A stretch of 64,000 bases of DNA from positions 883,183 through 947,182 of the forward strand of contig NZ_WTYB01000001.1 of NCBI RefSeq assembly GCF_009828055.1, read 5' to 3'. Shown one piece after another: positions 44,579 to 56,548 of the stretch (positions within the stretch are counted from its first letter, which is position 1; each line of letters opens with the position of its first letter). Source of the DNA: Erythrobacter ramosus (lineage in GTDB: Bacteria; Pseudomonadota; Alphaproteobacteria; Sphingomonadales; Sphingomonadaceae). The position numbers were made by a program, and so were the translations under genes. The notes beneath the pieces are model-generated. The model did no database searches. It was given only the letters and a program-made list of their open reading frames with translations, and was not told where the DNA came from.

Positions 44579-45208
44579 ATGGTGCTGACCGAACTCTTCC
44601 TATCCGCCTTCGTCACCCTGTTCGTGGTGATCGACCCGCCGGGGTGCGCGCCGATCTATGCCGGGCTGACCAAGGGCGCGACGCCGCAACAGGCGCGCAG
44701 CATGGCGCTGCGGGCGACGTGGATCGCCTCGATCATCCTGCTGATCTTCGCGCTGTTCGGGCAGGAATTGCTGGGCGCGCTGCATATTGAGCTGAACTCG
44801 TTCCGCATCGCGGGTGGGTTGATGCTGTTCTTCATCGCGTTCGACATGGTGTTCGAAAAGCGCACCCAGCGCCGCGAAGAACGTGCCGAAAAAATCGCCG
44901 CGACCCCGGAGATCGAGGATGTGTCGGTCTTCCCGATGGCGATGCCGATGCTCGCCGGACCGGGCGCGATTGCGGCGATCATGTTGCTGATGAACGAAGC
45001 CGAAGGCTGGCCCGAGATGTTCGAAGTGCTCGCTGCGCTGGCCGCCGTGCTGGCGATCACGGCGGCGGCGCTGGTGGCGGCAGGCCCGCTGATCCGGCTG
45101 CTGGGCGACAAGGTCGAAGCGGTCATCACCCGCCTGCTCGGCGTGTTGCTGGCCGCGCTCGCGGCGCAATATGTGATCGACGGGCTGAAGGGCAGCTTCG
45201 GACTGTAG
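44579..45208 (+). CDS. MarC family integral membrane protein
   Basis: A 209-residue protein with about six membrane segments. MarC features are VVIDPPGCAPIYAGLTKG, FRIAGGLMLFFIAFDMVF and MAMPMLAGPGAIAAIMLL. MarC was once named for drug resistance but its role is not settled. The gene ends 221 bases before the Ter island. The gap holds a candidate promoter at 45363 for that island. Confidence 0.9.
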   Translation: MVLTELFLSAFVTLFVVIDPPGCAPIYAGLTKGATPQQARSMALRATWIASIILLIFALFGQELLGALHIELNSFRIAGGLMLFFIAFDMVFEKRTQRREERAEKIAATPEIEDVSVFPMAMPMLAGPGAIAAIMLLMNEAEGWPEMFEVLAALAAVLAITAAALVAAGPLIRLLGDKVEAVITRLLGVLLAALAAQYVIDGLKGSFGL

Positions 45209-45362
45209 ACGCAGGGCGAAGGGGACGGCACTCGCCGTCATCCAGCGCCATTCGGGGCACAAGGTCAAGAGAATTGGCCGACGCTGTCACCCTCGCGCAA
45301 TGCCTTAATGAAAGCGTAATGATATCAGCAGTAACTCCCCCGTGACCCCCTCGGGCGCTGGG

Positions 45363-45391
45363 TTGACACCCCTCTGGCCTTCGGGGATATC
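45363..45391 (+). promoter_or_regulatory. Candidate promoter of the Ter island
   Basis: A consensus TTGACA at 45363-45368 is followed after 17 bases by GATATC (45386-45391). It stands 39 bases before the first island gene (terZ). No other close match to a -35 occurs in this gap. Confidence 0.4.
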
Positions 45392-45429
45392 CCAACTTGG
45401 GACAGACAGCACAATCGCGTGGGGGATCA

Positions 45430-46011
45430 GTGGGAATTTCGCTTCAGAAGAGCCAGTCGGTCAGCCTCGCCAAAGAGGCGCCCAACGGGTTGACGCAGAT
45501 CAGCCTGGGTGTGGGCTGGGATGTGGCCAAGAAGGGCTTCTTCGGCGGCCTGCTCGGCGGTGGGGGCGATATCGACCTTGATGCCTCGTGCATCACTTTC
45601 GATGCGGACAAGACCGTGCTGGAATCCGTGTGGTTCGGCAAGCTGACCAACGCCTCGGGCACGATCCGCCACAGCGGCGACAATCTGACGGGTGAGGGCG
45701 ACGGGGATGACGAAAGCATCGCCATCCAGCTCGACCGGCTCGACAGCAAGGTCGAATATCTCGTCCTCACCGTGAACAGCTTCCGCGGGCAGACCTTCGA
45801 CAAGGTCGCTAATGCGTTCGGCCGGGTGGTCGACAAGCGCAGCGGCAAGGAATTGGCGCGGTTCGACATTTCGGATTCCGGCTCGCACACCGGGCTGATC
45901 CTCGCGAGCCTGTCGCGCAACGGCGGGCAGTGGGACTTCAAGGCAATCGGGGAACGCACCGGCGGGCGCACCGTCCATGACCTGACGGCACCGGCCCGCG
46001 CGATCCTCTGA
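45430..46011 (+). CDS. terZ: TerZ/TerD-family protein
   Basis: A 193-residue TerD-superfamily protein. It resembles enterobacterial TerZ closely over KNQTVSL-like start, then IDLDASC with a VWFGKL segment, [16 protein letters not shown] (two acidic clusters that bind calcium in relatives) and LTVNSFRGQTF, LARFDIS. The glycine-rich GFFGGLLGGGG insertion is typical of TerZ. The GTG at 45430 has GGGGGA nearby. It opens the island and is followed by a TerD-like/TerA fusion. Confidence 0.9.
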   Translation: MGISLQKSQSVSLAKEAPNGLTQISLGVGWDVAKKGFFGGLLGGGGDIDLDASCITFDADKTVLESVWFGKLTNASGTIRHSGDNLTGEGDGDDESIAIQLDRLDSKVEYLVLTVNSFRGQTFDKVANAFGRVVDKRSGKELARFDISDSGSHTGLILASLSRNGGQWDFKAIGERTGGRTVHDLTAPARAIL

Positions 46012-46071
46012 TTGGCCGCAGCGCTCGACTGCGCCGCACCCTTCCTTCCATCTTTAGCCGGAGCCAGTCGT

Positions 46072-47256
46072 ATGCAGCTGCAACGTGGGGAAAAACGCTC
46101 CCTCGCCGATCTCGGAGTTGGCTCGCAATGCGAGGTCAAGGTCGAGTTCGGGATGGACGGGATCGATATTGCCGCCTTCGGGCTCGAGCCGGGACAGAAG
46201 ATCGGCGATGACCGCTATGTCGTGCTGTTCTCCAACCCTGCCACCCCCGGCGGCGAAGTGCGGATGACCAGCAGCGGCAACGCAGCCAGCTTTGCGCTCG
46301 ATCTCGACCGGCTGCCCGCGAGCATCGACCGGATCGTGTTCACCGCCACCCATGATAGCCGCGCGGTGGGCGAATCCCGTCCGCTGATGGTGAGCATTGA
46401 TGGCGGAAAGGCGAGCTTCGATGCCGCCGCCGCGCTCACCAACGAAAAGGCGGTGATGCTGGCAGAGATTTACCGCCATTCCTCCGGCTGGAAGCTGGGC
46501 ACGATTGCGGCCGGGTTTGCTGGCGGGTTGGGCGCGCTGATCGGGCATTTCGGCGGCGAAGTGGACGAGCCTGCACCTGCGCCGGCGCCTCCGCCGCCGC
46601 CTCCGGCACCGCCTCCACCGCCACCCCCGCCGCCTCCGCCCGCAGCGCCGGTCAGCCTGAAGAAGATCAGCCTCGACAAGGGCAATTCCACAGTCAGCCT
46701 GAAGAAGCAGGGCACCAGCTTCGGCGAGATCGTGCTCAACCTGAACTGGACCGCGCGGACCCAGAAGAAGGGCTTCTTCGGGGGATCGCAGCAGCTTGAT
46801 CTTGATCTGGGCGTGATCTTCGAACTGGCCGATGGCATGGGCGCAGGCTGTATCCAGGCGCTGGGCCGCAGCTTTGGCGCCTATAACCAGCCGCCCTTCA
46901 TCGAGCTGTCGGGCGACGACCGCACCGGCGCTGTTGCCGCTGGCGAGACGATCCGCGTTAACGGCCAGTATTTCGACTATATCCGCCGCATCGGCGTGTT
47001 CGCGCTGATCTATGAGGGTGCGCCCAACTGGGCCGAGACCGATGGGGTCGTCCGGCTCAACATTCCGGGCCAGCCTGAAATCGAGGTGCGGATGGACGAA
47101 ACCGGCAGCCGTGAACGGCTCTGCGGGATCGCCACGATCGACAATGTCGGCGGCGAGCTCAAGATGAGCCGGTTGATGCGCTTCTATTCCAGCCAGAAAC
47201 CCTTTGCCGAGGATATCGGCGTCTATCTTCAGTGGACGCGCGGCAGTAAGGACTGA
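46072..47256 (+). CDS. terA: TerD-like domain fused to TerA-like domain
   Basis: A 394-residue two-domain protein. Residues about 1-165 are a diverged TerD-like domain (VKVEFGMDGIDIAAFGLEPG, AVMLAEIYRHSSGWKLGTIA). A proline-rich linker (about 25 prolines and alanines) follows, and residues about 195-394 match TerA (LDLDLGVIFELADG, GRSFGAYNQPPFIELSGDDR, RRIGVFALIYEGAPNWAETD, GIATIDNVGGELKMSR). The ATG at 46072 has GGAG nine bases ahead. The linker probably lets the two halves move freely. TerA proteins are conserved in ter operons, but the activity is unknown. Confidence 0.88.
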   Translation: MQLQRGEKRSLADLGVGSQCEVKVEFGMDGIDIAAFGLEPGQKIGDDRYVVLFSNPATPGGEVRMTSSGNAASFALDLDRLPASIDRIVFTATHDSRAVGESRPLMVSIDGGKASFDAAAALTNEKAVMLAEIYRHSSGWKLGTIAAGFAGGLGALIGHFGGEVDEPAPAPAPPPPPPAPPPPPPPPPPPAAPVSLKKISLDKGNSTVSLKKQGTSFGEIVLNLNWTARTQKKGFFGGSQQLDLDLGVIFELADGMGAGCIQALGRSFGAYNQPPFIELSGDDRTGAVAAGETIRVNGQYFDYIRRIGVFALIYEGAPNWAETDGVVRLNIPGQPEIEVRMDETGSRERLCGIATIDNVGGELKMSRLMRFYSSQKPFAEDIGVYLQWTRGSKD

Positions 47257-47300
47257 GCAACAAGACTGCCGTATCACACGGCCAGAAGGATGATTTTTCG

Positions 47301-48353
47301 ATGTTGAAACACTTCGGCGGTTCGCTGCTGTTTACGGCCTTCGGCCTTGCACTGGGCGGCTGGTACGGCTGGGGGCTGACCGGCACCATTGATGGCATGC
47401 TGGGGATCGTGTGGATTTGCGCGGTGCTTGCGGTGCTGGAAGTGTCGCTGTCGTTCGATAACGCCGCGGTGAACGCCTCGGTTCTGAAGGACATGGACCC
47501 GGTCTGGCAGCAGCGCTTCCTGACCTGGGGGATCGCGATTGCGGTGTTCGGGATGCGGATCGTGTTCCCGTTGGTGATCGTGATGGTTGCAGCCTCACTC
47601 GGCCCGATTGAGGCGATGAAGCTCGCTCTGAATGAACCGACCGAATATCAGCGCATCGTCAGCGAAGCGCATATTGGCCTGATGGGCTTTGGCGGCGCGT
47701 TCCTCGGGATGGTGGGCCTCAAGTACTTCTTCGATTCCGACAAGGAAGTGAACTGGATCGACGCGATTGAACGCCCGCTGGCGAAGGTCGCCGATATTGA
47801 GGCGATTGCTATCGGGCTGGTGCTCGCTGGCACCTGGGCGACGTCGACCATGCTCGCCGATGCCGACGCGCTGACCTTCATCATCGCCGCAATTGCCGGT
47901 CTGCTGACCTATCTCGGCGTGGAGATCATCAACCACCTGCTCGAACCGCCCACGCCGACCACCGGCGATGTCGCCAAGGCGGGCTTCGGCGCGTTCCTCT
48001 ATCTCGAAGTGCTGGATGCCAGCTTCTCGTTCGACGGGGTGATCGGGGCCTTCGCGCTCACCAACAATCTCATCATCATTGCCATCGGTCTGGGGATCGG
48101 CGCGATGTTCGTGCGGTCGATGACGATCTTCCTCGTGCGCAAGGGCACGATGTCGGAATATCGCTATCTCGAACACGGCGCCTTCTATGCGATCATGGCG
48201 CTGGCGGTGATCATGTACATCAACACCTTTGCGCACATCCCCGAAGTCATCACCGGCCTGATCGGCGCGGTGTTGATCGGCCTCGCGTTCTGGTCGTCGG
48301 TGCGCTGGAACAAGGCCAACCCTGACGGGGAGCCTGAAGACGCGTTGGCCTGA
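47301..48353 (+). CDS. DUF475 membrane protein (TerC superfamily)
   Basis: A 350-residue polytopic membrane protein with about nine hydrophobic segments. The conserved acidic intramembrane motifs LEVSLSFDNAAVNASVLKDM and LEVLDASFSFDGVIGAFAL fit DUF475, a TerC-superfamily relative in which such Asp-containing motifs sit in the membrane; the superfamily is proposed to move metal ions such as manganese. The ATG has AGAAGGA about 11 bases ahead. It takes the position of TerC in the island. Confidence 0.87.
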   Translation: MLKHFGGSLLFTAFGLALGGWYGWGLTGTIDGMLGIVWICAVLAVLEVSLSFDNAAVNASVLKDMDPVWQQRFLTWGIAIAVFGMRIVFPLVIVMVAASLGPIEAMKLALNEPTEYQRIVSEAHIGLMGFGGAFLGMVGLKYFFDSDKEVNWIDAIERPLAKVADIEAIAIGLVLAGTWATSTMLADADALTFIIAAIAGLLTYLGVEIINHLLEPPTPTTGDVAKAGFGAFLYLEVLDASFSFDGVIGAFALTNNLIIIAIGLGIGAMFVRSMTIFLVRKGTMSEYRYLEHGAFYAIMALAVIMYINTFAHIPEVITGLIGAVLIGLAFWSSVRWNKANPDGEPEDALA

Positions 48354-48431
48354 TCGGCGGCGCAACATTCATCTTGGGTTGCGGCCGGGGCAGTCCCGGT
48401 CGCTGCCAGACTTGGGAAAGGAAGACGGATT

Positions 48432-49010
48432 ATGGCTATCTCACTGTCAAAGGGTGGCAATGTCAGCCTGTCGAAGGAAGCCCCCGGGCTTGACCGCATC
48501 ATGGTTGGCCTCGGCTGGGACGTGCGTGCGACCGACGGTAAGGATTTCGACCTCGATGCGTCGGCGTTCCTGTGCGCGGCGGGCGGCAAGGTCCGCAACG
48601 ACACCGATTTCTGCTTCTACAACAACAAGAACGTCGCCGGCGGCGCGGTCATCCATCAGGGCGACAACCGCACCGGCGAAGGTGACGGCGATGACGAGCA
48701 GATCGAGATCACCCTTTCGAAGATGCCCGCCGATGTCGATAAGGTCGCTGTGGTGGTGACGATCTACAATGGCGACGAGAACGGCCAGACCTTCGGCCAG
48801 GTCTCCAACGCCTTCATCCGTCTGGTCGACGCCAACAACAACAACGAAGTCGTGCGCTATGACCTGTCGGAAGACGCTTCGGTCGAAACCGCGATGATCC
48901 TCGGCGAAGTCTATCGCCACGGGGCGGAATGGAAGTTCCGCGCGGTTGGTCAAGGCTTCAAGGGCGGGCTCGGCCCGCTCGCGGCGCATTTCGGCGTCAA
49001 TGTCGGCTAA
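48432..49010 (+). CDS. terD: TerD family calcium-binding stress protein
   Basis: A 192-residue canonical Ter[45 protein letters not shown] and, at the end, [20 protein letters not shown]. The [12 protein letters not shown] acidic loop holds the calcium site of the family. AAAGGAAG lies nine bases before the ATG. It is about 60% identical by eye to the following gene product, a tandem duplication. Confidence 0.93.
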
Positions 49011-49077
49011 AGGCTTGGGTGCGCGGTCGGGGCAGGTGCCCGGGCCGCGCGCCACTTAACACAGGGAAGCACAGAAT

Positions 49078-49659
49078 ATGGCGGTTTCGCTCAGCAAGGG
49101 CGGCAATGTCTCTCTGTCGAAGGAAGCTCCGGGGCTGAATGCGGTCGTGGTCGGGCTCGGCTGGGACGTGCGGCGCACCGATGGCGCGGCGTTCGATCTC
49201 GATGCCTCGGCCTTCGTGATCGGCGCCAATGACAAGGTGCTCTCGGACGCGCATTTCATCTTCTACAACAACAAGACCTCGCCCGATGGCGCGGTGGTCT
49301 ACAGCGGCGACAACCGCACCGGCGACGGCGATGGCGATGACGAGACGATCCGCATCGACTTCAGCAAGCTCTCGCCCGATGCCAAAAAGGTCGTGATCGC
49401 GGTCACCATCCATGATGGCGAAATCAACGGGCAGAACTTCGGCTCGGTGCAGAACGCCTTTGCGCGCGTGACCAACGTGGCCGATGGCAAGGAGCTCGCC
49501 CGCTACGACCTGTCCGAAGATGCTTCGATGAACGTCGCGATGATCTTCGTCGAACTTTATCGCGGCAATGCAGGCGACATCAAGGTCAAGGCGATCGGCG
49601 AAGGCTGGCGCAGCGGGCTTGCGGGTCTGGCAGGCGCGATGGGTGTCAACATCGGCTGA
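49078..49659 (+). CDS. terE: TerD/TerE family protein
   Basis: A 193-residue close copy of the preceding TerD with [48 protein letters not shown] and [14 protein letters not shown]. It keeps all of the acidic calcium-loop residues. AGGGAAG lies ahead of the ATG. In enterobacteria, TerD and TerE are similarly paired; the terE name here rests on position and similarity only. Confidence 0.85.
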
Positions 49660-49678
49660 GCCGGGACGGGACGCGGCC

Positions 49679-50848
49679 ATGCAACCTGCCCAGCCCGGTC
49701 AGCGCGTGTCTGTCAGCGCCAAGGCTGACTGCCGCATCCGTCTGCAAGGGCCGGAAGGCCAGCGCATCGCTATTGCGGCGATCGGGACAGGTGGGGGCCA
49801 GAGCGGGCGCGTGCTCGCCTTTGAACGGATTGATCCGCAGCACTGGCATATGGACGGCATGGCCGAGTTGGAAGGCGACTTTGAAATCGTCGCCTATGTC
49901 ATGGATGATCGCCACGGCGGCTTTGCCAACGCTGCCTATCCGATCCACATGGAGGTGGACGGCACCACCCACGTGATGCCCCCACCGACCGAACAACTCG
50001 CCGCCGTGATCCTCGCCGAGGTCTATACCCGCAATGGCGAGCGGCGGATGAAGCTGTCGAACGAGGGCTTCACCTTCGGGATCGACGCCTATGTGAGGGC
50101 GCGCAATCTCGGCTCGGTGACGGTGCCGTTCCGCAATGTGCCGGATGTGCCACCGCCCGGAAATCATGGAGGCAATGGGCCCATCCCGCATCCTGATGGG
50201 CGCGGGCATAACCGCCCCAAGCCGGTGCCGGGCCAGCTGATCGGTTCGGGCAGCGGCGTGCTGATCGCGCCCGATCTGATCGTCACCAATGCCCATGTGG
50301 TCGAGGACGGCCAGCGTTTCGAGGTCGGCCCCGCGCGCGATTCCGGCGTCGTGCTGGCGGTCGATGCCCAGCACGATCTGGCGCTGCTGCGCTGCCAGAC
50401 TGCGGGCGCGCCGCTGCCGCTCCGGATCGGATCGCCGCTGTTTCTGGGTGAGGATATCATGGCCGCGGGCTTCCCGCTGATCGACGTGCTGGGGGCCGAT
50501 CTCAAGGTCACCACCGGCAATGTCTCGGGCCTCACGGGCGGGGGCGGGGACATCTCGCGCTTCCAGTTCAGCGCGCCAATTGGCTCGGGCTCGTCGGGCG
50601 GGGCGATCATCGACGAGTTCGGTAATCTGGTCGGCATCACTTCGGCGAGCCTCGCGCATGACAATATGCGCAACCGTGGGTCGATCTCCGAGAACGTCAA
50701 TTTCGGCATCCGCGCTGCGATGGTGTTCGAGATGGTAGCGGCGGCGGGGGCAGACCTGCCGCCGATCGCGATCTCGACCGATAACGTGCGCCGCAATGTC
50801 GTGGGGCGGGCGCGCAGTGCGGTGGTCAGCATCATCATCCATGCCTGA
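49679..50848 (+). CDS. TerD-like domain/trypsin-type serine protease fusion
   Basis: A 389-residue protein with two parts. Residues about 1-165 read like a diverged TerD domain (VIAYV-like strand FEIVAYVMDDRHGGFANAAY, then AAVILAEVYTRNGERRMKLS), without the acidic calcium loop. A glycine-proline linker follows, and residues about 185-380 are a trypsin-fold protease with the triad in TNAHVV (His), DAQHDLALLR (Asp) and IGSGSSGGAIID (Ser). No signal peptide is present, so it acts in the cytoplasm. It begins 17 bases after the terE stop and overlaps the next gene by eight bases, linking sensors and biosynthetic block. Confidence 0.85.
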   Translation: MQPAQPGQRVSVSAKADCRIRLQGPEGQRIAIAAIGTGGGQSGRVLAFERIDPQHWHMDGMAELEGDFEIVAYVMDDRHGGFANAAYPIHMEVDGTTHVMPPPTEQLAAVILAEVYTRNGERRMKLSNEGFTFGIDAYVRARNLGSVTVPFRNVPDVPPPGNHGGNGPIPHPDGRGHNRPKPVPGQLIGSGSGVLIAPDLIVTNAHVVEDGQRFEVGPARDSGVVLAVDAQHDLALLRCQTAGAPLPLRIGSPLFLGEDIMAAGFPLIDVLGADLKVTTGNVSGLTGGGGDISRFQFSAPIGSGSSGGAIIDEFGNLVGITSASLAHDNMRNRGSISENVNFGIRAAMVFEMVAAAGADLPPIAISTDNVRRNVVGRARSAVVSIIIHA

Positions 50849-51983
50849 TCCGGTGCAGGATTGCGTGACGGTCGACCTGCCGACCGGACGGCTGGTGCTG
50901 CGCGGGGTTGCGCCCGAGCGTGTCGCCGAGCTGTGCGATTTTGCCGCCAGGGCCAATCCCAAGCGTGGGTTCCTGATCGTCTCGCGGGTGTTGGGCCGCC
51001 ACCTCCCCACGCCGCCGCAAGCATTGCGCGCGACCGCTGACGCACTCGCCGCGCAAATCCCCGGCGACCTGCCGGGGCCGGTGCTGTTCTGCGGCATGGC
51101 GGAGACCGCGACGGGCCTTGCGCAAAGCGTGTGGGCAGCATGGCGCGCGCGGCACCCGGATGCTGCCAGCGCCTATATCCAGAGCAGCCGCCAGATCGCG
51201 GCGGGCGCGCGCATCCTCACCCGGTTCGAGGAAGGCCACAGCCACGCCGCCTCGCACATGGTGCAGGTGAGCGCGGAGATCGAACCCATACTCGCCGCCG
51301 CGCGCAGCCTCGTGATCGTCGATGATGAAAGCAGCACCGGCAGCACCTTTGTCGAAGCGGCTGAGGCGCTGGTAGCCGCCTTGCCGCAGATCGCGGCGGT
51401 GCATTGCGCCAGCCTGACCGATTGGAGCGCGGGTGGGTTCCTGTTGCGGATGCCGCGTCCCGCTGCGGCCCATTCCTTGATCGCCGGGACGCTCGAATGG
51501 ACGCCGGGGGCAGGGCAAGCTGCCGCCACACTCGCGCCCGCCGCCAACCGCCACGGCACGGCGACTGCCACCGGAATGCGCAGCCGTACCGGCCTGCTCG
51601 CGCCCGAGGCCGCCGACCGCGCCCCCCTCACCGCCACGCCGGGTGAACGGGTGCTGGTGCTGGGCGATGGCGAGCACGCCTATGAATCGCTGCGCATCGC
51701 CGAAGACCTCGCCGCGCTGGGGGCTATCACCGCCGTCCAGTCGATCACCCGCACGCCCGCGCTGATCGGCCACGCAATGCAAAGCGTCACCACGCTCACG
51801 GACGCCTATGGCTCGGGCGCGATGTGCCATGTCTATAACCTCCTCGCGCACCGGCCCGACCGGATCGTCATCGCTGCGGAGATTGCGGGGGCGCAAGCCG
51901 ACGAGTTGGCGCGCTGGGTCGCTGAAGCGGGTAGCACGGCGATGGTGGAACTGGCGCTATGCCGCTACGGGGCGCAGGCATGA
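50841..51983 (+). CDS. Phosphoribosyltransferase-TRSP domain protein of the Ter biosynthetic block
   Basis: A 380-residue protein with an N-terminal phosphoribosyltransferase domain, whose PRPP loop VIVDDESSTGSTFVEA is near residue 160, and a C-terminal part resembling the TRSP domain (VLVLGDGEHAYESLRIAEDL, SVTTLTDAYGSGAMCHVYNL). In published comparative work on Ter systems such proteins are predicted to join a base-like moiety to PRPP, starting a nucleoside-like compound. The ATG lies within the protease gene and its own stop overlaps the HAD gene by ATGA. Confidence 0.85.
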   Translation: MPDPVQDCVTVDLPTGRLVLRGVAPERVAELCDFAARANPKRGFLIVSRVLGRHLPTPPQALRATADALAAQIPGDLPGPVLFCGMAETATGLAQSVWAAWRARHPDAASAYIQSSRQIAAGARILTRFEEGHSHAASHMVQVSAEIEPILAAARSLVIVDDESSTGSTFVEAAEALVAALPQIAAVHCASLTDWSAGGFLLRMPRPAAAHSLIAGTLEWTPGAGQAAATLAPAANRHGTATATGMRSRTGLLAPEAADRAPLTATPGERVLVLGDGEHAYESLRIAEDLAALGAITAVQSITRTPALIGHAMQSVTTLTDAYGSGAMCHVYNLLAHRPDRIVIAAEIAGAQADELARWVAEAGSTAMVELALCRYGAQA

Positions 51984-52729
51984 CCATCCGCCCGCTCATT
52001 CTGGCCGACCTTGACGACAGCCTGTTCCAGACGCGGCCCAAGTGCGGCGATTGGCCGGATGATACGCTGCGGCTGATGAGCCGCCTCGTCGATGGCAGCC
52101 CCAGCGGCTATGCCACTCCGCCGCAGCAGGGGCTGATGGCGTGGCTGGCGCATGGCGAGGTGGTGCCCGTCACCGCGCGCAGCCGCGAGGTGCTGTCGCG
52201 GGTCGATATCGCGCAGGCCCCGGCGATCTGCGCCAATGGCGGCTGCATCCTGATGGCGGACGGCACACCCGATCCAGTCTGGCACCGCCACCTTGAGGCT
52301 CAGGCGCAGGCCGGGATCACACCCGGCGCGCTCTATCCCGAACTCATCGCCGGTCTGGACGGCGAGGCGTTCCGGCACTGGATCGTCAGCGAGGACGGGC
52401 TCGATCTCTACTGTGTCATCAAGAGCAACCACGGCGATGTCCCCGCGCTCACCGCCGTGGCCGAGGCGCTCAAGCCGCGTCTTCCCCAAGGCTGGCGCAT
52501 CCACGCCAATGGCAACAACCTCGCCTTCCTGCCCCCGTGGCTGAGCAAGCGGGCAGCGGTGCGGTATATGCTGGAACAGGTCCGCTGCGTCACGCCCGAA
52601 CGCCCGGTGATCGGCATCGGCGATAGCTGGTCGGATGCGGGCTTCCTTGACCTCACCGACATGGCGATGATCCCGACCCAGGCGCAGCTGTGGCAGCACA
52701 TCGCGCGCGGGCATGAGTGGATCGATTGA
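51980..52729 (+). CDS. HAD-superfamily hydrolase of the Ter block
   Basis: A 249-residue haloacid-dehalogenase-type phosphatase. Motif I is LADLDDSLFQT near residues 10-20, the lysine motif and motif IV GIGDSWSDAGFLDLTDMAM near 213. A cap domain lies between. It would remove a phosphate from an intermediate of the predicted metabolite. The start overlaps the preceding stop by ATGA, and the next gene begins ten bases after its stop, so the block is translated together. Confidence 0.85.
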   Translation: MTIRPLILADLDDSLFQTRPKCGDWPDDTLRLMSRLVDGSPSGYATPPQQGLMAWLAHGEVVPVTARSREVLSRVDIAQAPAICANGGCILMADGTPDPVWHRHLEAQAQAGITPGALYPELIAGLDGEAFRHWIVSEDGLDLYCVIKSNHGDVPALTAVAEALKPRLPQGWRIHANGNNLAFLPPWLSKRAAVRYMLEQVRCVTPERPVIGIGDSWSDAGFLDLTDMAMIPTQAQLWQHIARGHEWID

Positions 52730-52739
52730 GGGTTTGGCC

Positions 52740-53813
52740 ATGACCCTGTTCCACGGCTCCTACGCCCCCGAGGACGTGACCTTCCTGCTGAAGCCCGCAG
52801 CCATCGGCCTCACAGGCGTGCGCGCCAAGGAGGCGCTGATCCAGTCGGGGGCGCGGCATTATTCGGAAATGCTGTCGGAGGAGCGGCTGCCGGATCAGCG
52901 CTATCTCGATCTCTACCACGCCGCGCTGGCGAGGAATGGTGGGCGGCTCAGGGGCGACGTCGCGGCGCTGGCCGACGCGATTGCCGCGCGGCCTGAGACT
53001 GCTCAAAGCAGCACGATCATCTCGCTCGCCCGGGCAGGCACGCCCATCGGCGTGCTGCTGCGGCGCGCCTTGCTGCGGCGCGGGGTGGAGGCGGTGCATT
53101 ACTCGGTCAGCATCATCAGGGGGCGCGGGATCGACCGCGTGGCACTCGCCCACATCGCCGCCGCACGCGGGACAGCGGACGCGGTGTTCGTTGACGGTTG
53201 GACCGGCAAGGGTGCGATCACCGGGGAGCTGGAAGCGAGCCTCGGCGACGGCAGCACCGGCTTTGCCCCCTTCCTCGCGGTGGTGGCTGACCCGGCGGGT
53301 TGCGCTTCATTGGCGGCGACGGCGGAAGACTATCTCATCCCCTCGGGCATCCTCGGCGGGATCGTGTCCGGGCTGGTCAGCCGCTCGGTGCTGAGCGACG
53401 CGCTGGTGGGCGAGGGCGACTTCCACGCCTGCCGCCACCTTACGGAATTCGCCGCAGCCGACCAATCGCGCGCCTTCATCGCCGCCGTCGAGGCCGCTGC
53501 ACCTTCGGCCCAACCCCACCCCGGTTGGACCGCCGCAGGGGCCCGCCAGAGCCGCCTTGCCTGCGAGACGCTGATCGCCAGCCTGATGGACGAATTCGCC
53601 GTGACGGACCGCAACCGCATCAAGCCCGGCATCGCCGAAGCCACCCGCGCTGTCCTGCGCCGCGTGCCCAAGGCCGTACTCGTGCGCGACAAGGATGACG
53701 CGGAAGTTGCGCATTTGCTTCATCTTGCCACACAAACCGGGGTAAGTGTGCATCAACGGGAACTAGGCAACTATCGCGCCGTAACTGTGATTGCGAAAGC
53801 AGGAGACGTGTGA
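52740..53813 (+). CDS. StiP/PRTase-PELOTA protein of the Ter block
   Basis: A 357-residue protein annotated in databases as a cysteine protease StiP-family member; the N-terminal two-thirds look like a phosphoribosyltransferase (IISLARAGTPIGVLLRR and the PRPP-like VFVDGWTGKGAITGEL), and the last 50 residues resemble the PELOTA RNA-binding domain (AVLVRDKDDAEVAHLLHLAT, then QRELGNYRAVTVI). Whether it is a transferase or peptidase is not settled; I favour the transferase fold. Its stop overlaps the next start as TGATG. Confidence 0.8.
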   Translation: MTLFHGSYAPEDVTFLLKPAAIGLTGVRAKEALIQSGARHYSEMLSEERLPDQRYLDLYHAALARNGGRLRGDVAALADAIAARPETAQSSTIISLARAGTPIGVLLRRALLRRGVEAVHYSVSIIRGRGIDRVALAHIAAARGTADAVFVDGWTGKGAITGELEASLGDGSTGFAPFLAVVADPAGCASLAATAEDYLIPSGILGGIVSGLVSRSVLSDALVGEGDFHACRHLTEFAAADQSRAFIAAVEAAAPSAQPHPGWTAAGARQSRLACETLIASLMDEFAVTDRNRIKPGIAEATRAVLRRVPKAVLVRDKDDAEVAHLLHLATQTGVSVHQRELGNYRAVTVIAKAGDV

Positions 53814-54727
53814 TGACGAAAGCGGTCGAACTCGGCGCGACGCTCTATATCCCGGTGCAGCACCCGCGCCTTGCGGAGGTGCTGGCGGGCGACAATCCCG
53901 ATCTGCGTTCAGTGGTGATCTGCCTTGAGGATTCGCTGCACGAGGCCGAGGTGGGCGCGGCGCAGGATGTGTTCTGCGCGACGCTCCGGGCGCTGGAGGC
54001 CGCGCCCCCGGCGCTGATCGCCTATACCCGCCCGCGCAATCCCGAGATGCTGACCTGGATGCAGGCCCAGCCGGGGATTGAGCGGCTGGCCGGTTTCGTC
54101 CTGCCCAAGATCACAACCGCCAATCTGGCGGACTGGCTGGCGCGGCTGGAAAATCCTCAGCATGGGATCATGCCCACCATTGAAAGCGCCGAGGCGTTTG
54201 ACCGTGCGGCGCTGACCGCGATGGCCCGCGCGCTCGAACCGCTGGGTAGCCGCGTCCATGCGGTCAGGATCGGCGGGAACGACATCCTTAACCTGCTCGG
54301 CGTGCGCCGCTCGCGCACCCGCACCGCCTATGACGGCCCGCTCGGTTTGGCGATCGCCACCATGGCGAGCGTGTTCCTGCCCGAAGGCATGGCACTGTCC
54401 GCTCCGGTGTTTGAGCATTACGCGCAAAGCGATCTGCTGCGCGAAGAGGTCGCACGCGATCTGGAGCATGGCCTGCTGACCAAGACCGCGATCCATCCGG
54501 TGCAGGTCGGCATCATCCACGAAGCGCTGCGCCCCTCGGCGAGCGAAGCGGATGAAGCCCGCGCGATCCTCGCCCGAGAAGCGCGGGCGGTGTTCAGCCA
54601 CGGCGGCAGCATGTGCGAGCCGACCACCCACGCGCGCTGGGCCGCAGGCGTGCTTGACCGCGCCGAGGTCCATGGCTTGCGCGGTGCGGCCCCCGGCGTT
54701 TCCGAACAGCCGACGCGGGTCGCCTGA
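53813..54727 (+). CDS. HpcH/HpaI aldolase / CitE-like protein of the Ter block
   Basis: A 304-residue TIM-barrel lyase related to citrate lyase beta subunit. Typical segments are LRSVVICLEDSLHEAEVG (with the metal-binding Glu-Asp), GFVLPKITTANL, IMPTIESAEAFDR and KTAIHPVQVGIIHEAL. The family cleaves or joins carbon-carbon bonds with a metal and a CoA or pyruvate partner; in Ter islands a contribution to the metabolite is proposed. The ATG at 53813 overlaps the preceding stop. Confidence 0.85.
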   Translation: MTKAVELGATLYIPVQHPRLAEVLAGDNPDLRSVVICLEDSLHEAEVGAAQDVFCATLRALEAAPPALIAYTRPRNPEMLTWMQAQPGIERLAGFVLPKITTANLADWLARLENPQHGIMPTIESAEAFDRAALTAMARALEPLGSRVHAVRIGGNDILNLLGVRRSRTRTAYDGPLGLAIATMASVFLPEGMALSAPVFEHYAQSDLLREEVARDLEHGLLTKTAIHPVQVGIIHEALRPSASEADEARAILAREARAVFSHGGSMCEPTTHARWAAGVLDRAEVHGLRGAAPGVSEQPTRVA

Positions 54728-54734
54728 CGCTGTC

Positions 54735-55706
54735 GTGACCGCGATCACCAAACGGCGCCACGCCGAACTGGCCGGGCAGGCGATGAAATATGTCGCCGAA
54801 CTGCTGCTGATCGAGCCGCTGAGTCCGGCCTTCGATCACAAGCTCGAAGCAATTGAGGCGCTGGGCCGGGATGAAATCGCGCAGCTTTCCGCGCGCCACG
54901 CGGGCAGCCTCGCCCATGTCGCACCGCCGCCGACCGGGGGGATCGCCCGCGCGATTATGGGGCTGCGCAACCTTGCTGAAAGCCTCGAACCGCTGCGGCA
55001 GGGTAATTTGGCTGGCAATTTGGCCGGCGGGGCCAAGCGCTTCGGCCTGATCCCGGCCAAACCCGACCCCAAGGCCTATTTCCGCCGCTACCGCGAGGCG
55101 CAGGGCGAGATCGAGGCTGCGCTGGCTGCGCTGACCCGCGAGCGTGATGCGCTGATCCGCGCCAATGTCACCTTGGAGTCCGAGCAGGCCGGGCTGACGC
55201 CGCTGATCGCCACGCTCAGCGAGCACGCGCTATTCGCCGAGGAAATCGCGCTCACTCTCACCGCCCGCGCTGAGGCGCTCGCCGCGCGTGAGCCGATGAA
55301 GGCGCGGCGGCTGCAATCGGATGTGCTCCACACCGTCCAGACCCGGCTGCGCGACATTGCCGAGGCCCGCGCGCTTGCCATGCAGGCCGCCGCTCTGCGC
55401 GAGATCGTCAGCGCCACCAACACCCGGCTGATCGAAGGCATTGATCAGGCGACTGCCACTATGGTGCTGGTGCTGCGCACCGCCATTGAAGCGGCGCGGC
55501 TGATTGCGAGCCAAGAGCTGGTGCTTGACGGGATTGCCAGCCTGCGCCGCGCGGCGAGCAATCTGATCGCGGAGGATGATCCCGTCAGCACGGACGCCGG
55601 TGCCGAAGCCTTGCAGTCGGCCTTTGCCAAGCTCTACGATGCGCTCGACCGGCTCGACACTGAACGCGCGGGCAGCGCGGCGCGCTTGGCCGATCCGGCG
55701 CGTTAA
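54735..55706 (+). CDS. TelA-like toxic-anion resistance protein
   Basis: A 323-residue largely coiled-coil protein of the TelA type (KlaA/TelA, PF05816): helical bundle with RREAQGEIEAALAALTRERD-like segments, AREPMKARRLQSDVLHTVQT and LIEGIDQATATMVLVLRTAI. TelA proteins are linked to tellurite resistance and cell-shape protection in other bacteria. The GTG at 54735 is eight bases after the previous stop; an ATG at 54783 is the alternative. No ribosome site is strong for either. Confidence 0.8.
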   Translation: MTAITKRRHAELAGQAMKYVAELLLIEPLSPAFDHKLEAIEALGRDEIAQLSARHAGSLAHVAPPPTGGIARAIMGLRNLAESLEPLRQGNLAGNLAGGAKRFGLIPAKPDPKAYFRRYREAQGEIEAALAALTRERDALIRANVTLESEQAGLTPLIATLSEHALFAEEIALTLTARAEALAAREPMKARRLQSDVLHTVQTRLRDIAEARALAMQAAALREIVSATNTRLIEGIDQATATMVLVLRTAIEAARLIASQELVLDGIASLRRAASNLIAEDDPVSTDAGAEALQSAFAKLYDALDRLDTERAGSAARLADPAR

Positions 55707-55779
55707 GGTGGCGCTTGCCGGGGTGTGGTGTTAGGACGACACGCCGGATAAGCGCCGGTCAATGGAGACGTGACGGTTC

Positions 55780-56256
55780 GTGGGCCTGTTTGATTCGATC
55801 CGGAAGATATTTGCGGCGCCTGAGCCGGGGGCGGACCCCGCGCCCGCCGCTGCGCCGCCCGCGAACCGCAAGCCCGCGTTCGATTATGATGACCAGCGCG
55901 TGCCCACCGGCGCGCGGGACAAGATCCGCACGATCCTTTCCAGCCTCGCCGAAGTTGAAGGCATGATGGACCGCGAACAGGTGCAGGCCGTCAGCCGCAC
56001 CGAGATCGAGCTGATGCGCGACGAGCACCTGCCCAAGCTGGTCAAAAGCTACATCGACATCCCCAGCGCCCACCGCGCCGAAATCTTCCGCAAGACTGGC
56101 AAGTCGGCGAGTTTCATCCTCGAAGAAAGCCTAGGCACCATGCAGGCCCGGATCGACGAGATCGCCCGCAATCTGGCGCAGCACGATCTCGACGCTTTCT
56201 CCAGCAACGCGGCCTTCATCAGCCGCCGCTATAGCGACAACGATCCGTTCCGGTGA
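55780..56256 (+). CDS. Small helical XpaC-like protein of the Ter island
   Basis: A 158-residue soluble protein opening with MGLFDSIRKIFAAPEP, a proline-alanine linker, and then a four-helix region (IELMRDEHLPKLVKSYIDIP, SASFILEESLGTMQARIDEI, LDAFSSNAAFISRRYSDND). The last part reminds me of the XpaC C-terminal domain, which often sits beside TelA, but the similarity is a guess from pattern. The GTG at 55780 is the only usable start. It is the last gene of the island, 73 bases past TelA. Confidence 0.65.
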   Translation: MGLFDSIRKIFAAPEPGADPAPAAAPPANRKPAFDYDDQRVPTGARDKIRTILSSLAEVEGMMDREQVQAVSRTEIELMRDEHLPKLVKSYIDIPSAHRAEIFRKTGKSASFILEESLGTMQARIDEIARNLAQHDLDAFSSNAAFISRRYSDNDPFR

Positions 56257-56260
56257 GGCT

Positions 56261-56548
56261 TCAGGCCCAGTCGCCCAGCAGTGGGGTGAACTCGTCCACC
56301 CGGATCAGCTGCCACACCCCGCCGGTGAGGTAGGGATCGTCCGCCAGAATGGCGCGCGCCGCCGCTTCGTCTGCCGCCTTCACGATCAGCAATGAGCCGA
56401 TGATTAGCCCGTCGCTGCGCTTCAACGGGCCAACGATCACGAAATGCTCGGCATTGGCATGGACGAACTCAAGGTGCGCCGGGCGATGGATTGCGCGCAG
56501 GCGGCCGCCGTCTTCGCCGTCGCGGCAGTGGAAGCAGAACATACGCAT
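56261..56548 (-). CDS. YciI-family protein
   Basis: A 95-residue protein of the YciI/DGPF-like ferredoxin-like fold: MRMFCFHCRDGEDGGRLRAI, HRPAHLEFVHANAEHFVIVG and a late GVWQLIRVDEFTP. The conserved histidine-aspartate pair is partly visible (AHLEFV). It is convergent with the Ter island and ends four bases from it. The start is the ATG at 56548; ribosome site is weak. Enzymatic role is uncertain. Confidence 0.78.
   Translation of the reverse strand: MRMFCFHCRDGEDGGRLRAIHRPAHLEFVHANAEHFVIVGPLKRSDGLIIGSLLIVKAADEAAARAILADDPYLTGGVWQLIRVDEFTPLLGDWA

What the first reader, a model, noticed from the sequence alone, without database searches (positions are those of the whole stretch)
45430..56256. 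Complete-looking Ter stress island with sensor, membrane and biosynthetic modules
Twelve consecutive same-strand genes, several overlapping by 1-8 bases, encode three TerD-type proteins, a TerD-like/TerA fusion, a DUF475/TerC protein, a TerD-like/trypsin protease, and a block PRTase-TRSP, HAD, StiP/PELOTA, CitE-like aldolase, then TelA and an XpaC-like protein. Comparative genomics (Anantharaman, Iyer and Aravind, 2012) predicts that such sets sense metals with calcium-binding TerD and make a nucleoside-like metabolite; no product has been identified to my knowledge. This island has the core of that pathway in one unit, so it is a tractable case to learn what it makes.
Basis: partly seen in the sequence, partly recalled or inferred. 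Interest (0 to 1): 0.75.

Follow-up and report, generated by a model that had tools for sequence, protein, structure and literature searches.

The report
Ter stress operon missing its ATP-grasp
This is a real member of a known but unexplained bacterial stress-response system (the Ter system); in this bacterium and its sampled relatives it lacks one of the predicted metabolite-making enzymes and is wrapped around an older metal-transport-type gene, which makes it a useful natural test of which steps the unknown metabolite needs.

Summary
In detail: twelve same-strand genes at about 45430-56256 form one Ter operon, and most domain labels are confirmed. "Complete" does not hold. The genome has no Ter-type ATP-grasp (its only PF15632 match is in an 1117-aa ORF elsewhere) and no TerB. 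Sister operons carry the ATP-grasp gene exactly between the second TerD and the TerD-like/trypsin gene; 9 of 9 Erythrobacter operons read across this junction lack it, yet the genes tested are under purifying selection (dN/dS 0.07-0.29). The "island" is two blocks (45209-47291, 48354-56256) flanking a DUF475/TerC-type gene that 10 of 11 fetched ter-less relatives keep alone at the same site. StiP, named a cysteine protease in Pfam and plasmid records, models as a phosphoribosyltransferase fold plus an L7Ae/PELOTA-like domain; its Cys is not strictly conserved. The TerD-like/trypsin gene keeps its catalytic triad in 38 of 38 operons and usually lies just before the PRTase. The XpaC label is not supported. 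The product remains unknown. Best reading: a known kind of system in a reduced, lineage-specific form. The ATP-grasp is probably a late or optional step, and the resident transporter gene is the hub.

The parts
45209..47291 (+). block A: TerD0 (45430-46011) and TerD/TerA-like fusion (46072-47256); absent from ter-less relatives
   Evidence: Pfam TerD; window aligns to 10 ter-less loci only up to 45199-45209 and again from 47279-47300
45430..46011 (+). TerD-type protein, 193 aa, GTG start (length matches most Erythrobacter relatives)
46072..47256 (+). TerD-like domain, proline-rich linker, second half TerA-like (the TerA name is recalled, Pfam shows TerD only)
47301..48353 (+). DUF475/TerC-family membrane protein; resident gene kept alone at this site in 10 of 11 fetched ter-less Erythrobacter
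48354..56256 (+). block B: TerD1 to the small last gene; absent from ter-less relatives
48432..49010 (+). TerD-type protein
   Evidence: E 1e-83
49078..49659 (+). TerD-type protein
   Evidence: E 2e-71
49660..49678 (+). 19-base junction where 8 of 8 sister operons carry the ATP-grasp gene (about 1 kb); nothing remains here
49679..50848 (+). degenerate TerD-like domain fused to HtrA/trypsin-like protease with intact His-Asp-Ser triad
50841..51983 (+). PRTase_2 (canonical DDExxTGxT PRPP loop, APRT-like fold) plus TRSP domain
51980..52729 (+). HAD-IIB-like phosphatase
52713..53813 (+). StiP: phosphoribosyltransferase fold plus L7Ae/PELOTA-like RNA-binding domain
53813..54727 (+). CitE/HpcH-like C-C bond lyase
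54735..55706 (+). TelA
   Evidence: matched within ORF 54552-55706

Best explanation
This is a Ter-dependent stress-response operon in a reduced, Erythrobacter-specific form. Shown: twelve genes in one direction with the biosynthetic core (canonical PRTase, HAD, StiP = second PRTase-fold protein with an RNA-binding-like domain, CitE-like lyase), TerD genes, a TerD-like protease, a DUF475/TerC membrane protein and TelA. Shown: the Ter ATP-grasp gene is absent from exactly one junction in all sampled Erythrobacter operons, while the other genes tested stay under purifying selection. Shown: the DUF475 gene in the middle is resident and is kept without the rest in most ter-less relatives. Inferred: under envelope or metal stress the PRTase, HAD and CitE-like enzymes make a small phosphoribosyl-derived compound; StiP makes, binds or regulates it; the TerD proteins, which keep the acidic motifs usually read as metal-binding, sense the compound or the metal; they act on the DUF475/TerC transporter and TelA at the membrane. 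Inferred: the ATP-grasp normally adds a late decoration, so this lineage makes a simpler product that still works with its own TerD set. Inferred: the TerD-like protease acts in the cytosol as a switch that matures or removes a pathway protein.
For: Domain identities. Folds: StiP model pLDDT 93; Foldseek hits headed by HGPRT/XGPRT (E about 1e-4, prob 1.00), VIA best Z 10.1 with rmsd 3.4 over 148 residues; 6 of 6 ordinary Pribosyltran proteins scanned (chosen because they were weak StiP hits) also match the StiP profile (E 1e-6 to 4e-4, below its cut-off). PRTase_2 model Z 12.7 to APRT, rmsd 3.2 over 168. ATP-grasp: TerD2-stop to protease-stop distance 1170-1204 bp in 9 of 9 Erythrobacter operons against 2114-3643 bp in 8 of 8 sister operons that carry it; in 10 of 10 ter+ Erythrobacter genomes PF15632 matches only ORFs of 1108-1246 aa, the size of carbamoyl-phosphate synthase. 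Tree of PRT+HAD+StiP+CitE: the 9 form one clade (100/100), sister to 9 ATP-grasp+ operons (95/97); the order ATPgrasp-protease-PRTase also occurs in Pseudomonas and Burkholderia. Selection: dN/dS 0.07-0.29 for ten gene segments in four comparisons (TerD0, TerDA and TerD2 not done). Core: StiP 103, PRTase 102, HAD 101, CitE 92, ATP-grasp 60 of 103 operons within the fetched flanks. Protease triad kept in 38 of 38. Resident DUF475: 10 of 11 fetched ter-less loci, tree.
Against: No chemistry, ligand, expression or phenotype was measured. An ATP-grasp outside PF15632 could act in trans. 'Late or optional' is an inference from loss; the loss could instead have changed or ended the biosynthetic role, the enzymes being kept for another task. 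StiP's PRPP-like loop (D-G-W-T-G-K-G) is shorter than canonical and lacks the second acidic residue, so it may not be an enzyme; its Foldseek matches cover part of the model only (TM-score 0.2-0.3 by query length, about 0.35-0.54 by target). The Cys of the protease reading is nearly invariant (90% or more of 25 rows). Of 24 further genomes whose loci lacked the ATP-grasp, 3 have a strong match elsewhere (L085, L089, L159), and three more (those of L129, L146, L155) have weaker matches in ORFs of 299-409 aa of unclear identity.
Confidence: 0.6

Rival explanations
1. The ATP-grasp step is still done, by an unlinked ligase of another family, so this lineage makes the same full product as other Ter systems.
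For: Only PF15632 was searched; bacterial genomes hold other ATP-grasp enzymes. CitE-like and PRTase genes are kept under selection.
Against: The gene is absent from the operon in 9 of 9 members of the clade read across the junction and the only PF15632 matches are in ORFs of 1108 aa or more. In other Ter operons the gene is kept beside the pathway in 60 of 103.
Confidence: 0.2
2. The block acts on RNA or as a nucleotide-sensing regulator rather than as a pathway: StiP is a PyrR-like PRTase-fold RNA-binding sensor with a PELOTA/L7Ae-type domain, and PRTase_2/HAD change the pool of a nucleotide that StiP reads.
For: VIA matches to PyrR (Z 9.7) tie with HPRT (Z 10.1); the C-terminal part matches L7Ae chains at E 0.002-0.04 and weaker; the StiP loop lacks the second acidic residue present in PRTase_2.
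Against: Fold similarity shows no function; HAD, CitE and (elsewhere) ATP-grasp are metabolic enzymes. No RNA target or structured leader was found (Rfam: no match in the window at gathering scores).
Confidence: 0.25
3. Mainly a metal or tellurite resistance unit: the DUF475/TerC transporter and TerD proteins do the work, and the biosynthetic block is a passenger.
For: In Klebsiella and E. coli K-12 terZ-F alone give tellurite resistance (PMC8115787, passages read). DUF475 stands alone in most ter-less relatives.
Against: Block B genes are kept under purifying selection, and PRTase, HAD and StiP are together in 101 of 103 operons.
Confidence: 0.15
4. Origin rival: ter-less Erythrobacter lost two blocks around DUF475, rather than ter+ strains gaining them.
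For: DUF475 of ter+ and ter-less strains forms one clade (98/91) in which the two groups are not cleanly separated (best tree: 3 changes for ter+, 2 for ter-less; starred branches force only 1); same MarC/PutA site; no base-composition anomaly.
Against: 9 of 10 ter-less rows form one clade (91/90), so one loss or a few gains fit equally. Operon and DUF475 trees differ for L047/L051, although a shared clade is not rejected (p-AU 0.061). No relic of ter genes was seen at the site in ter-less strains; the one stray match is 47 bases in L068, away from the site.
Confidence: 0.5

Closest known systems
Ter-dependent stress response systems (Anantharaman, Iyer and Aravind 2012; not held, known here through passages of PMC5512222, PMC7824862 and PMC8115787)
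   Same: TerD, TerC-type membrane protein, TelA, two PRTases, HAD, StiP-PELOTA, CitE-like lyase in one neighbourhood
   Different: no ATPgrasp_Ter, no TerB in the genome; the TerC place is taken by a DUF475 gene that is resident at the site; a TerD-like/trypsin gene is built in
Ter operons of Croceicoccus, Sphingobium, Sphingomonas plasmid pIC081B and Asticcacaulis (L081-L083, L086, L087) and of unnamed family members (L046, L047, L051)
   Same: nearly the same order: TerD-TerDA-DUF475-TerD-TerD-[ATP-grasp]-protease-PRTase-HAD-StiP-CitE-TelA-small gene
   Different: they carry the ATP-grasp; 6 of these 8 also have a DUF4236-type or related gene between protease and PRTase, which the window lacks; except L047/L051 their DUF475 is distant
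Enterobacterial ter locus (Klebsiella, E. coli plasmids)
   Same: StiP relatives in 2568 of 72,556 plasmid records, first among them by count Klebsiella and Escherichia; biosynthetic cluster beside ter genes
   Different: biosynthetic block on the opposite strand from TerD genes; ATP-grasp mostly present; tellurite resistance was tested there, not here
Type I phosphoribosyltransferases (HPRT, PyrR, APRT)
   Same: fold of StiP (HPRT/PyrR) and of PRTase_2 (APRT)
   Different: StiP has a shortened loop and an extra L7Ae-like domain; substrates unknown

Membership tests
Ter-dependent stress response system | TerD proteins with conserved acidic motifs | tested here: met
   invariant D/G-rich motifs across 12 rows including three window copies; that they bind calcium is recalled
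Ter-dependent stress response system | TerC-type membrane protein | tested here: met
   TerC 77.5 bits (cut-off 27.8) and DUF475 363 bits
Ter-dependent stress response system | TelA | tested here: met
   107 bits, cut-off 30
Ter-dependent stress response system | PRTase_2-TRSP, HAD, StiP-PELOTA, C-C lyase | tested here: met
   the HAD by family and motifs, not by its own Pfam hit
Ter-dependent stress response system | ATPgrasp_Ter (PF15632) | tested here: not met
   only an 1117-aa ORF elsewhere matches; the junction has no room for it; present in sister operons
Ter-dependent stress response system | TerB (PF05099) | tested here: not met
   no match in the genome; 4 of 14 control genomes ring
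Ter-dependent stress response system | vWA proteins (TerF, TerY type) | not tested
   none seen among the twelve genes; genome not searched
Ter-dependent stress response system | a nucleoside-like product; resistance to tellurite, phage or colicin | not testable with these tools
   needs bench work
StiP as cysteine protease | strictly conserved catalytic cysteine | tested here: not met
   no Cys among the invariant columns of 25 rows, though C240 is nearly invariant; the H[AG]C motif was found in 90 and missing in 13 of 103 domain sequences
Phosphoribosyltransferase superfamily (StiP) | type I PRTase fold and PPi/PRPP-like loops | tested here: met
   the PRPP loop is divergent
XpaC / Halogen_Hydrol (PF10112) | profile match of gene 55780-56256 | tested here: not met
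   0 of 11 members; no match at E 10 in the genome at this place; remote kinship not excluded
Known anti-phage systems (PADLOC) | match to a PADLOC protein | tested here: not met
   10 of the 12 proteins were scanned (not 48432-49010 and 55780-56256): only protease-domain matches to RT-Protease_XI and Avs1b, which I read as generic

The most novel reading that the evidence does not exclude
Erythrobacter keeps a working Ter system without the ATP-grasp, so the signal's core is made by PRTase_2, HAD, StiP and CitE alone and the ATP-grasp only decorates it; Ter systems of different lineages would then use a family of related signals matched to their own TerD sensors. The TerD-like/trypsin protein is a built-in proteolytic switch, and the operon is organised around a pre-existing metal transporter, which is the real effector.
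Probability: 0.25. Interest if true: 0.65.

Novelty: new variant of a known kind. Interest (0 to 1): 0.42.

Why it matters
The product of the Ter pathway has been a prediction since 2012, while Ter-type genes are common on plasmids of clinical genera (StiP relatives in 2568 of 72,556 plasmid records). A lineage that keeps the other biosynthetic genes under selection but has dropped the ATP-grasp narrows which steps make the core, gives a simpler set to reconstitute, and allows a direct product comparison with ATP-grasp+ sister operons of nearly the same layout. The StiP result also means that a widely used record name (cysteine protease StiP) probably points to the wrong chemistry.

Tried and rejected
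Complete pathway: rejected, ATPgrasp_Ter and TerB absent. Recent foreign island by base composition: not supported (block A 63.8% and block B 67.0% G+C against 63.7% upstream and 65.7% downstream). Metal riboswitch before DUF475: no Rfam match in the window at gathering scores. Promoters and terminators: 1 and 5 pattern matches, no more than in shuffles (1.6 and 5.8), so no internal break in transcription can be argued either way. Known anti-phage system: no specific match. StiP versus PRTase_2 by profile comparison: hhalign probability 0.8%, E 0.07, so the two PRTase-fold proteins are not close relatives. XpaC and a PDB relative for the last gene: nothing convincing (best PDB E 0.057). First DUF475 tree had four solo genes read on the wrong strand; repeated correctly, also leaving out four rows (L134, L147, L152, L158). 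One early gene-order table dropped overlapping HAD and CitE calls and two operons; the counts used are those. Literature: the 2012 paper is not held. Searches (listed: 25 of 55, 30 of 60, 15 of 109, 40 of 45, 12 of 16, 12 of 1180 and 7 of 7 papers) showed no title or abstract start that names the product or an ATP-grasp-less Ter operon; only passages of PMC7824862, PMC8115787, PMC9933665, PMC5512222, PMC7159879, PMC13092281 and PMC12839542 were seen. Whether the 2012 paper already describes the TerD-trypsin fusion or ATP-grasp-less operons could not be checked.
Full report
What is there. The window lies in contig C2 of a 3.24-Mb genome. Twelve + strand ORFs run from 45397 to 56256. Start codons chosen from relatives' lengths and neighbouring stops (inference): 45430, 46072, 47301, 48432, 49078, 49679, 50841, 51980, 52713 or 52740, 53813, 54735, 55780. 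Pfam confirms TerD (four proteins), DUF475/TerC, Trypsin_2, PRTase_2+TRSP, StiP+PELOTA_1, C-C_Bond_Lyase/HpcH_HpaI and TelA. The HAD identity rests on its family: at E 0.1, 8 of 16 members hit Hydrolase_3 and 10 of 16 hit S6PP, the window's own copy neither; the DxDD motif is in 98 of 101 and GDSxxD in 101 of 101. The last gene is conserved beside TelA but has no recognised family.

The missing enzyme. Pfam names PF15632 as the ATP-grasp in the biosynthetic pathway with the Ter operon. The own genome has one match, in an 1117-aa ORF on another contig, most likely carbamoyl-phosphate synthase (judged by size only). In nine of the 24 other ter genomes searched, a strong ATP-grasp match lies within the ter locus. 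In eight sister operons it sits exactly between the second TerD (in L082 with a further TerD/TerA-like gene) and the TerD-like protease: L046, L047, L051, L081, L082, L083, L086, L087. The distance from TerD stop to protease stop is 2114-3643 bp there and 1170-1204 bp in 9 of 9 Erythrobacter operons read across the junction. Ten of ten ter+ Erythrobacter genomes have no other PF15632 match than ORFs of 1108-1246 aa. On a tree of PRTase+HAD+StiP+CitE (28 rows, 1216 columns) the nine form one clade (100/100), sister to nine ATP-grasp+ operons (95/97); Pseudomonas (L093) and one of two Burkholderia rows (L102) share the ATPgrasp-protease-PRTase order. Four further rows of that tree lack the ATP-grasp too (L044, L055, L090, L143), and the label needs four changes, so absence has arisen more than once. 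Loss at the base of the Erythrobacter operon is the simplest reading. The genes tested are not decaying: dN/dS is 0.07-0.29 in ten gene segments against four relatives (TerD0, TerDA and TerD2 not done).

How common is this. Among 103 StiP operons held (25 found by profile search, 75 from a motif-seeded scan after removing 5 duplicates, two met at the MarC-PutA site, and the window), StiP is in 103, PRTase in 102, HAD in 101, CitE-like in 92, ATP-grasp in 60, the trypsin-type protease in 38 and DUF475 in 29. Of 24 genomes re-searched because their loci lacked it, three have a strong ATP-grasp match outside the fetched flank or on another contig (L085, L089, L159), and three have weaker matches in ORFs of 299-409 aa (L129, L146, L155). 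Within it, PRTase+HAD+StiP are the fixed core, and the ATP-grasp is the most often missing biosynthetic enzyme. In the sampled order, 14 of 396 genomes pass the StiP cut-off, in the phylum sample 12 of 398, and 3 of 37 genus members match PELOTA. StiP relatives are in 2568 of 72,556 plasmid records and 3 of 50,697 phage records.

StiP. Pfam and plasmid records call it a cysteine protease. The predicted structure (pLDDT 93) matches 6-oxopurine phosphoribosyltransferases and PyrR: Foldseek E about 1e-4 with probability 1.00, though the TM-scores are modest (0.2-0.3 by query, about 0.35-0.54 by target); VIA Z 10.1, rmsd 3.4, 148 aligned. Six of six ordinary PRTases scanned, picked from the weak hits of the genome searches, match both Pribosyltran and, below cut-off, the StiP profile. 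[quoted passage not shown] StiP carries an [AV]RAGxPxG loop (100 of 103) and D-[GS]-W-x-[GA]-K-G in place of the canonical PRPP loop; the latter is in 103 of 103, but the scan was seeded on it, so the fair figure is 25 of 25 for the invariant D, W, K and G. PRTase_2 has the canonical DDExxTGxT in 99 of 102 and an APRT-like fold (Z 12.7). The C-terminal part of StiP matches L7Ae chains (best E 0.002). For the protease name speaks that C240 is nearly invariant in 25 rows; against it, the motif is missing in 13 of 103.

The protease. Its N-terminal part is a TerD relative (12 of 13 members hit TerD at E up to 1, best 3e-9; hhalign 98.1%, 92 columns) that lacks the acidic motifs of TerD in the window copy (seen in the sequence). 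The His-Asp-Ser triad is present in 38 of 38 operons; in 31 of 38 the gene lies within 400 bp of the PRTase domain. In six of the other seven an extra gene lies between them, with a DUF4236 domain in the two full-length copies scanned and a shorter relative in L051; in the seventh (L147) it is a TerD/TerA-like gene. The window has no match to the DUF4236-type gene.

The site. Thirteen MarC-PutA loci of the genus were fetched. Two proved ter+ without ATP-grasp (L072, L073). Of the eleven ter-less ones, ten read MarC - DUF475 - YciI-like - PutA (the YciI name from the window copy), and one (L071) holds unrelated metabolic genes and no DUF475. The window aligns to the ten up to about 45209, again over about 47292-48353 (DUF475, 84-87% identity; flanks 79-85%), and again from about 56257. 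So ter genes form two blocks around DUF475. DUF475 of nine ter+ and ten ter-less strains forms one clade (98/91), next to L047/L051 (87/81) and a solo gene of another genus (100/100); six other ATP-grasp+ operons have a distant DUF475. A shared clade of the Erythrobacter and L047/L051 operons is not rejected (p-AU 0.061). Gain and loss remain open.

How it most likely works. From established knowledge of the families (recalled unless cited): a PRTase makes a phosphoribosyl compound, HAD removes a phosphate, a CitE-like lyase cuts or joins a C-C bond, an ATP-grasp ligates an acid to an amine. One overview assigns signal synthesis to PRTases and HAD, sensing to TerB and TerD, transport to TerC and sub-membrane roles to TelA (PMC7824862, passage). 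TerC relatives are reported to metalate exported enzymes (PMC10550928, abstract start in the listing). In Klebsiella terZ-F alone restores or gives tellurite resistance and how the biosynthetic cluster connects is called unclear (PMC8115787, passages). I infer that the Erythrobacter form makes a simpler signal and couples it to the resident DUF475 transporter. None of this is shown.

Verdict. An ordinary kind of system in an instructive reduced form.

Noticed in passing
L071:1601-12612: In one ter-less genome (G022) the MarC-PutA gap holds about 11 kb of unrelated metabolic genes (amidohydrolase/PD40, bile-acid symporter-like, acyl-CoA dehydrogenase, aldehyde dehydrogenase, GST, PNP-type phosphorylase) and no DUF475, so the site may be a variable spot.
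   Followed up: partly
L046:6436-7521, L083:7012-8067, L051:7251-8078: Sister operons hold an extra gene with a DUF4236 start domain (a shorter relative without it in L051) between protease and PRTase; absent from the window.
   Followed up: partly
L082 (Sphingomonas sp. IC081 plasmid pIC081B): An operon of nearly this layout, with ATP-grasp, lies on a plasmid, a possible vehicle.
   Followed up: no
window 56261-56548 (-): YciI-like gene conserved between the ter site and PutA in the window and in ten ter-less loci.
   Followed up: partly
G014, G001 and window: MarC is 100% identical between the window and ter-less G014, while PutA is 86% identical; ter+ G001 has MarC 99% and PutA 97%: a hint of recombination near the site.
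   Followed up: no
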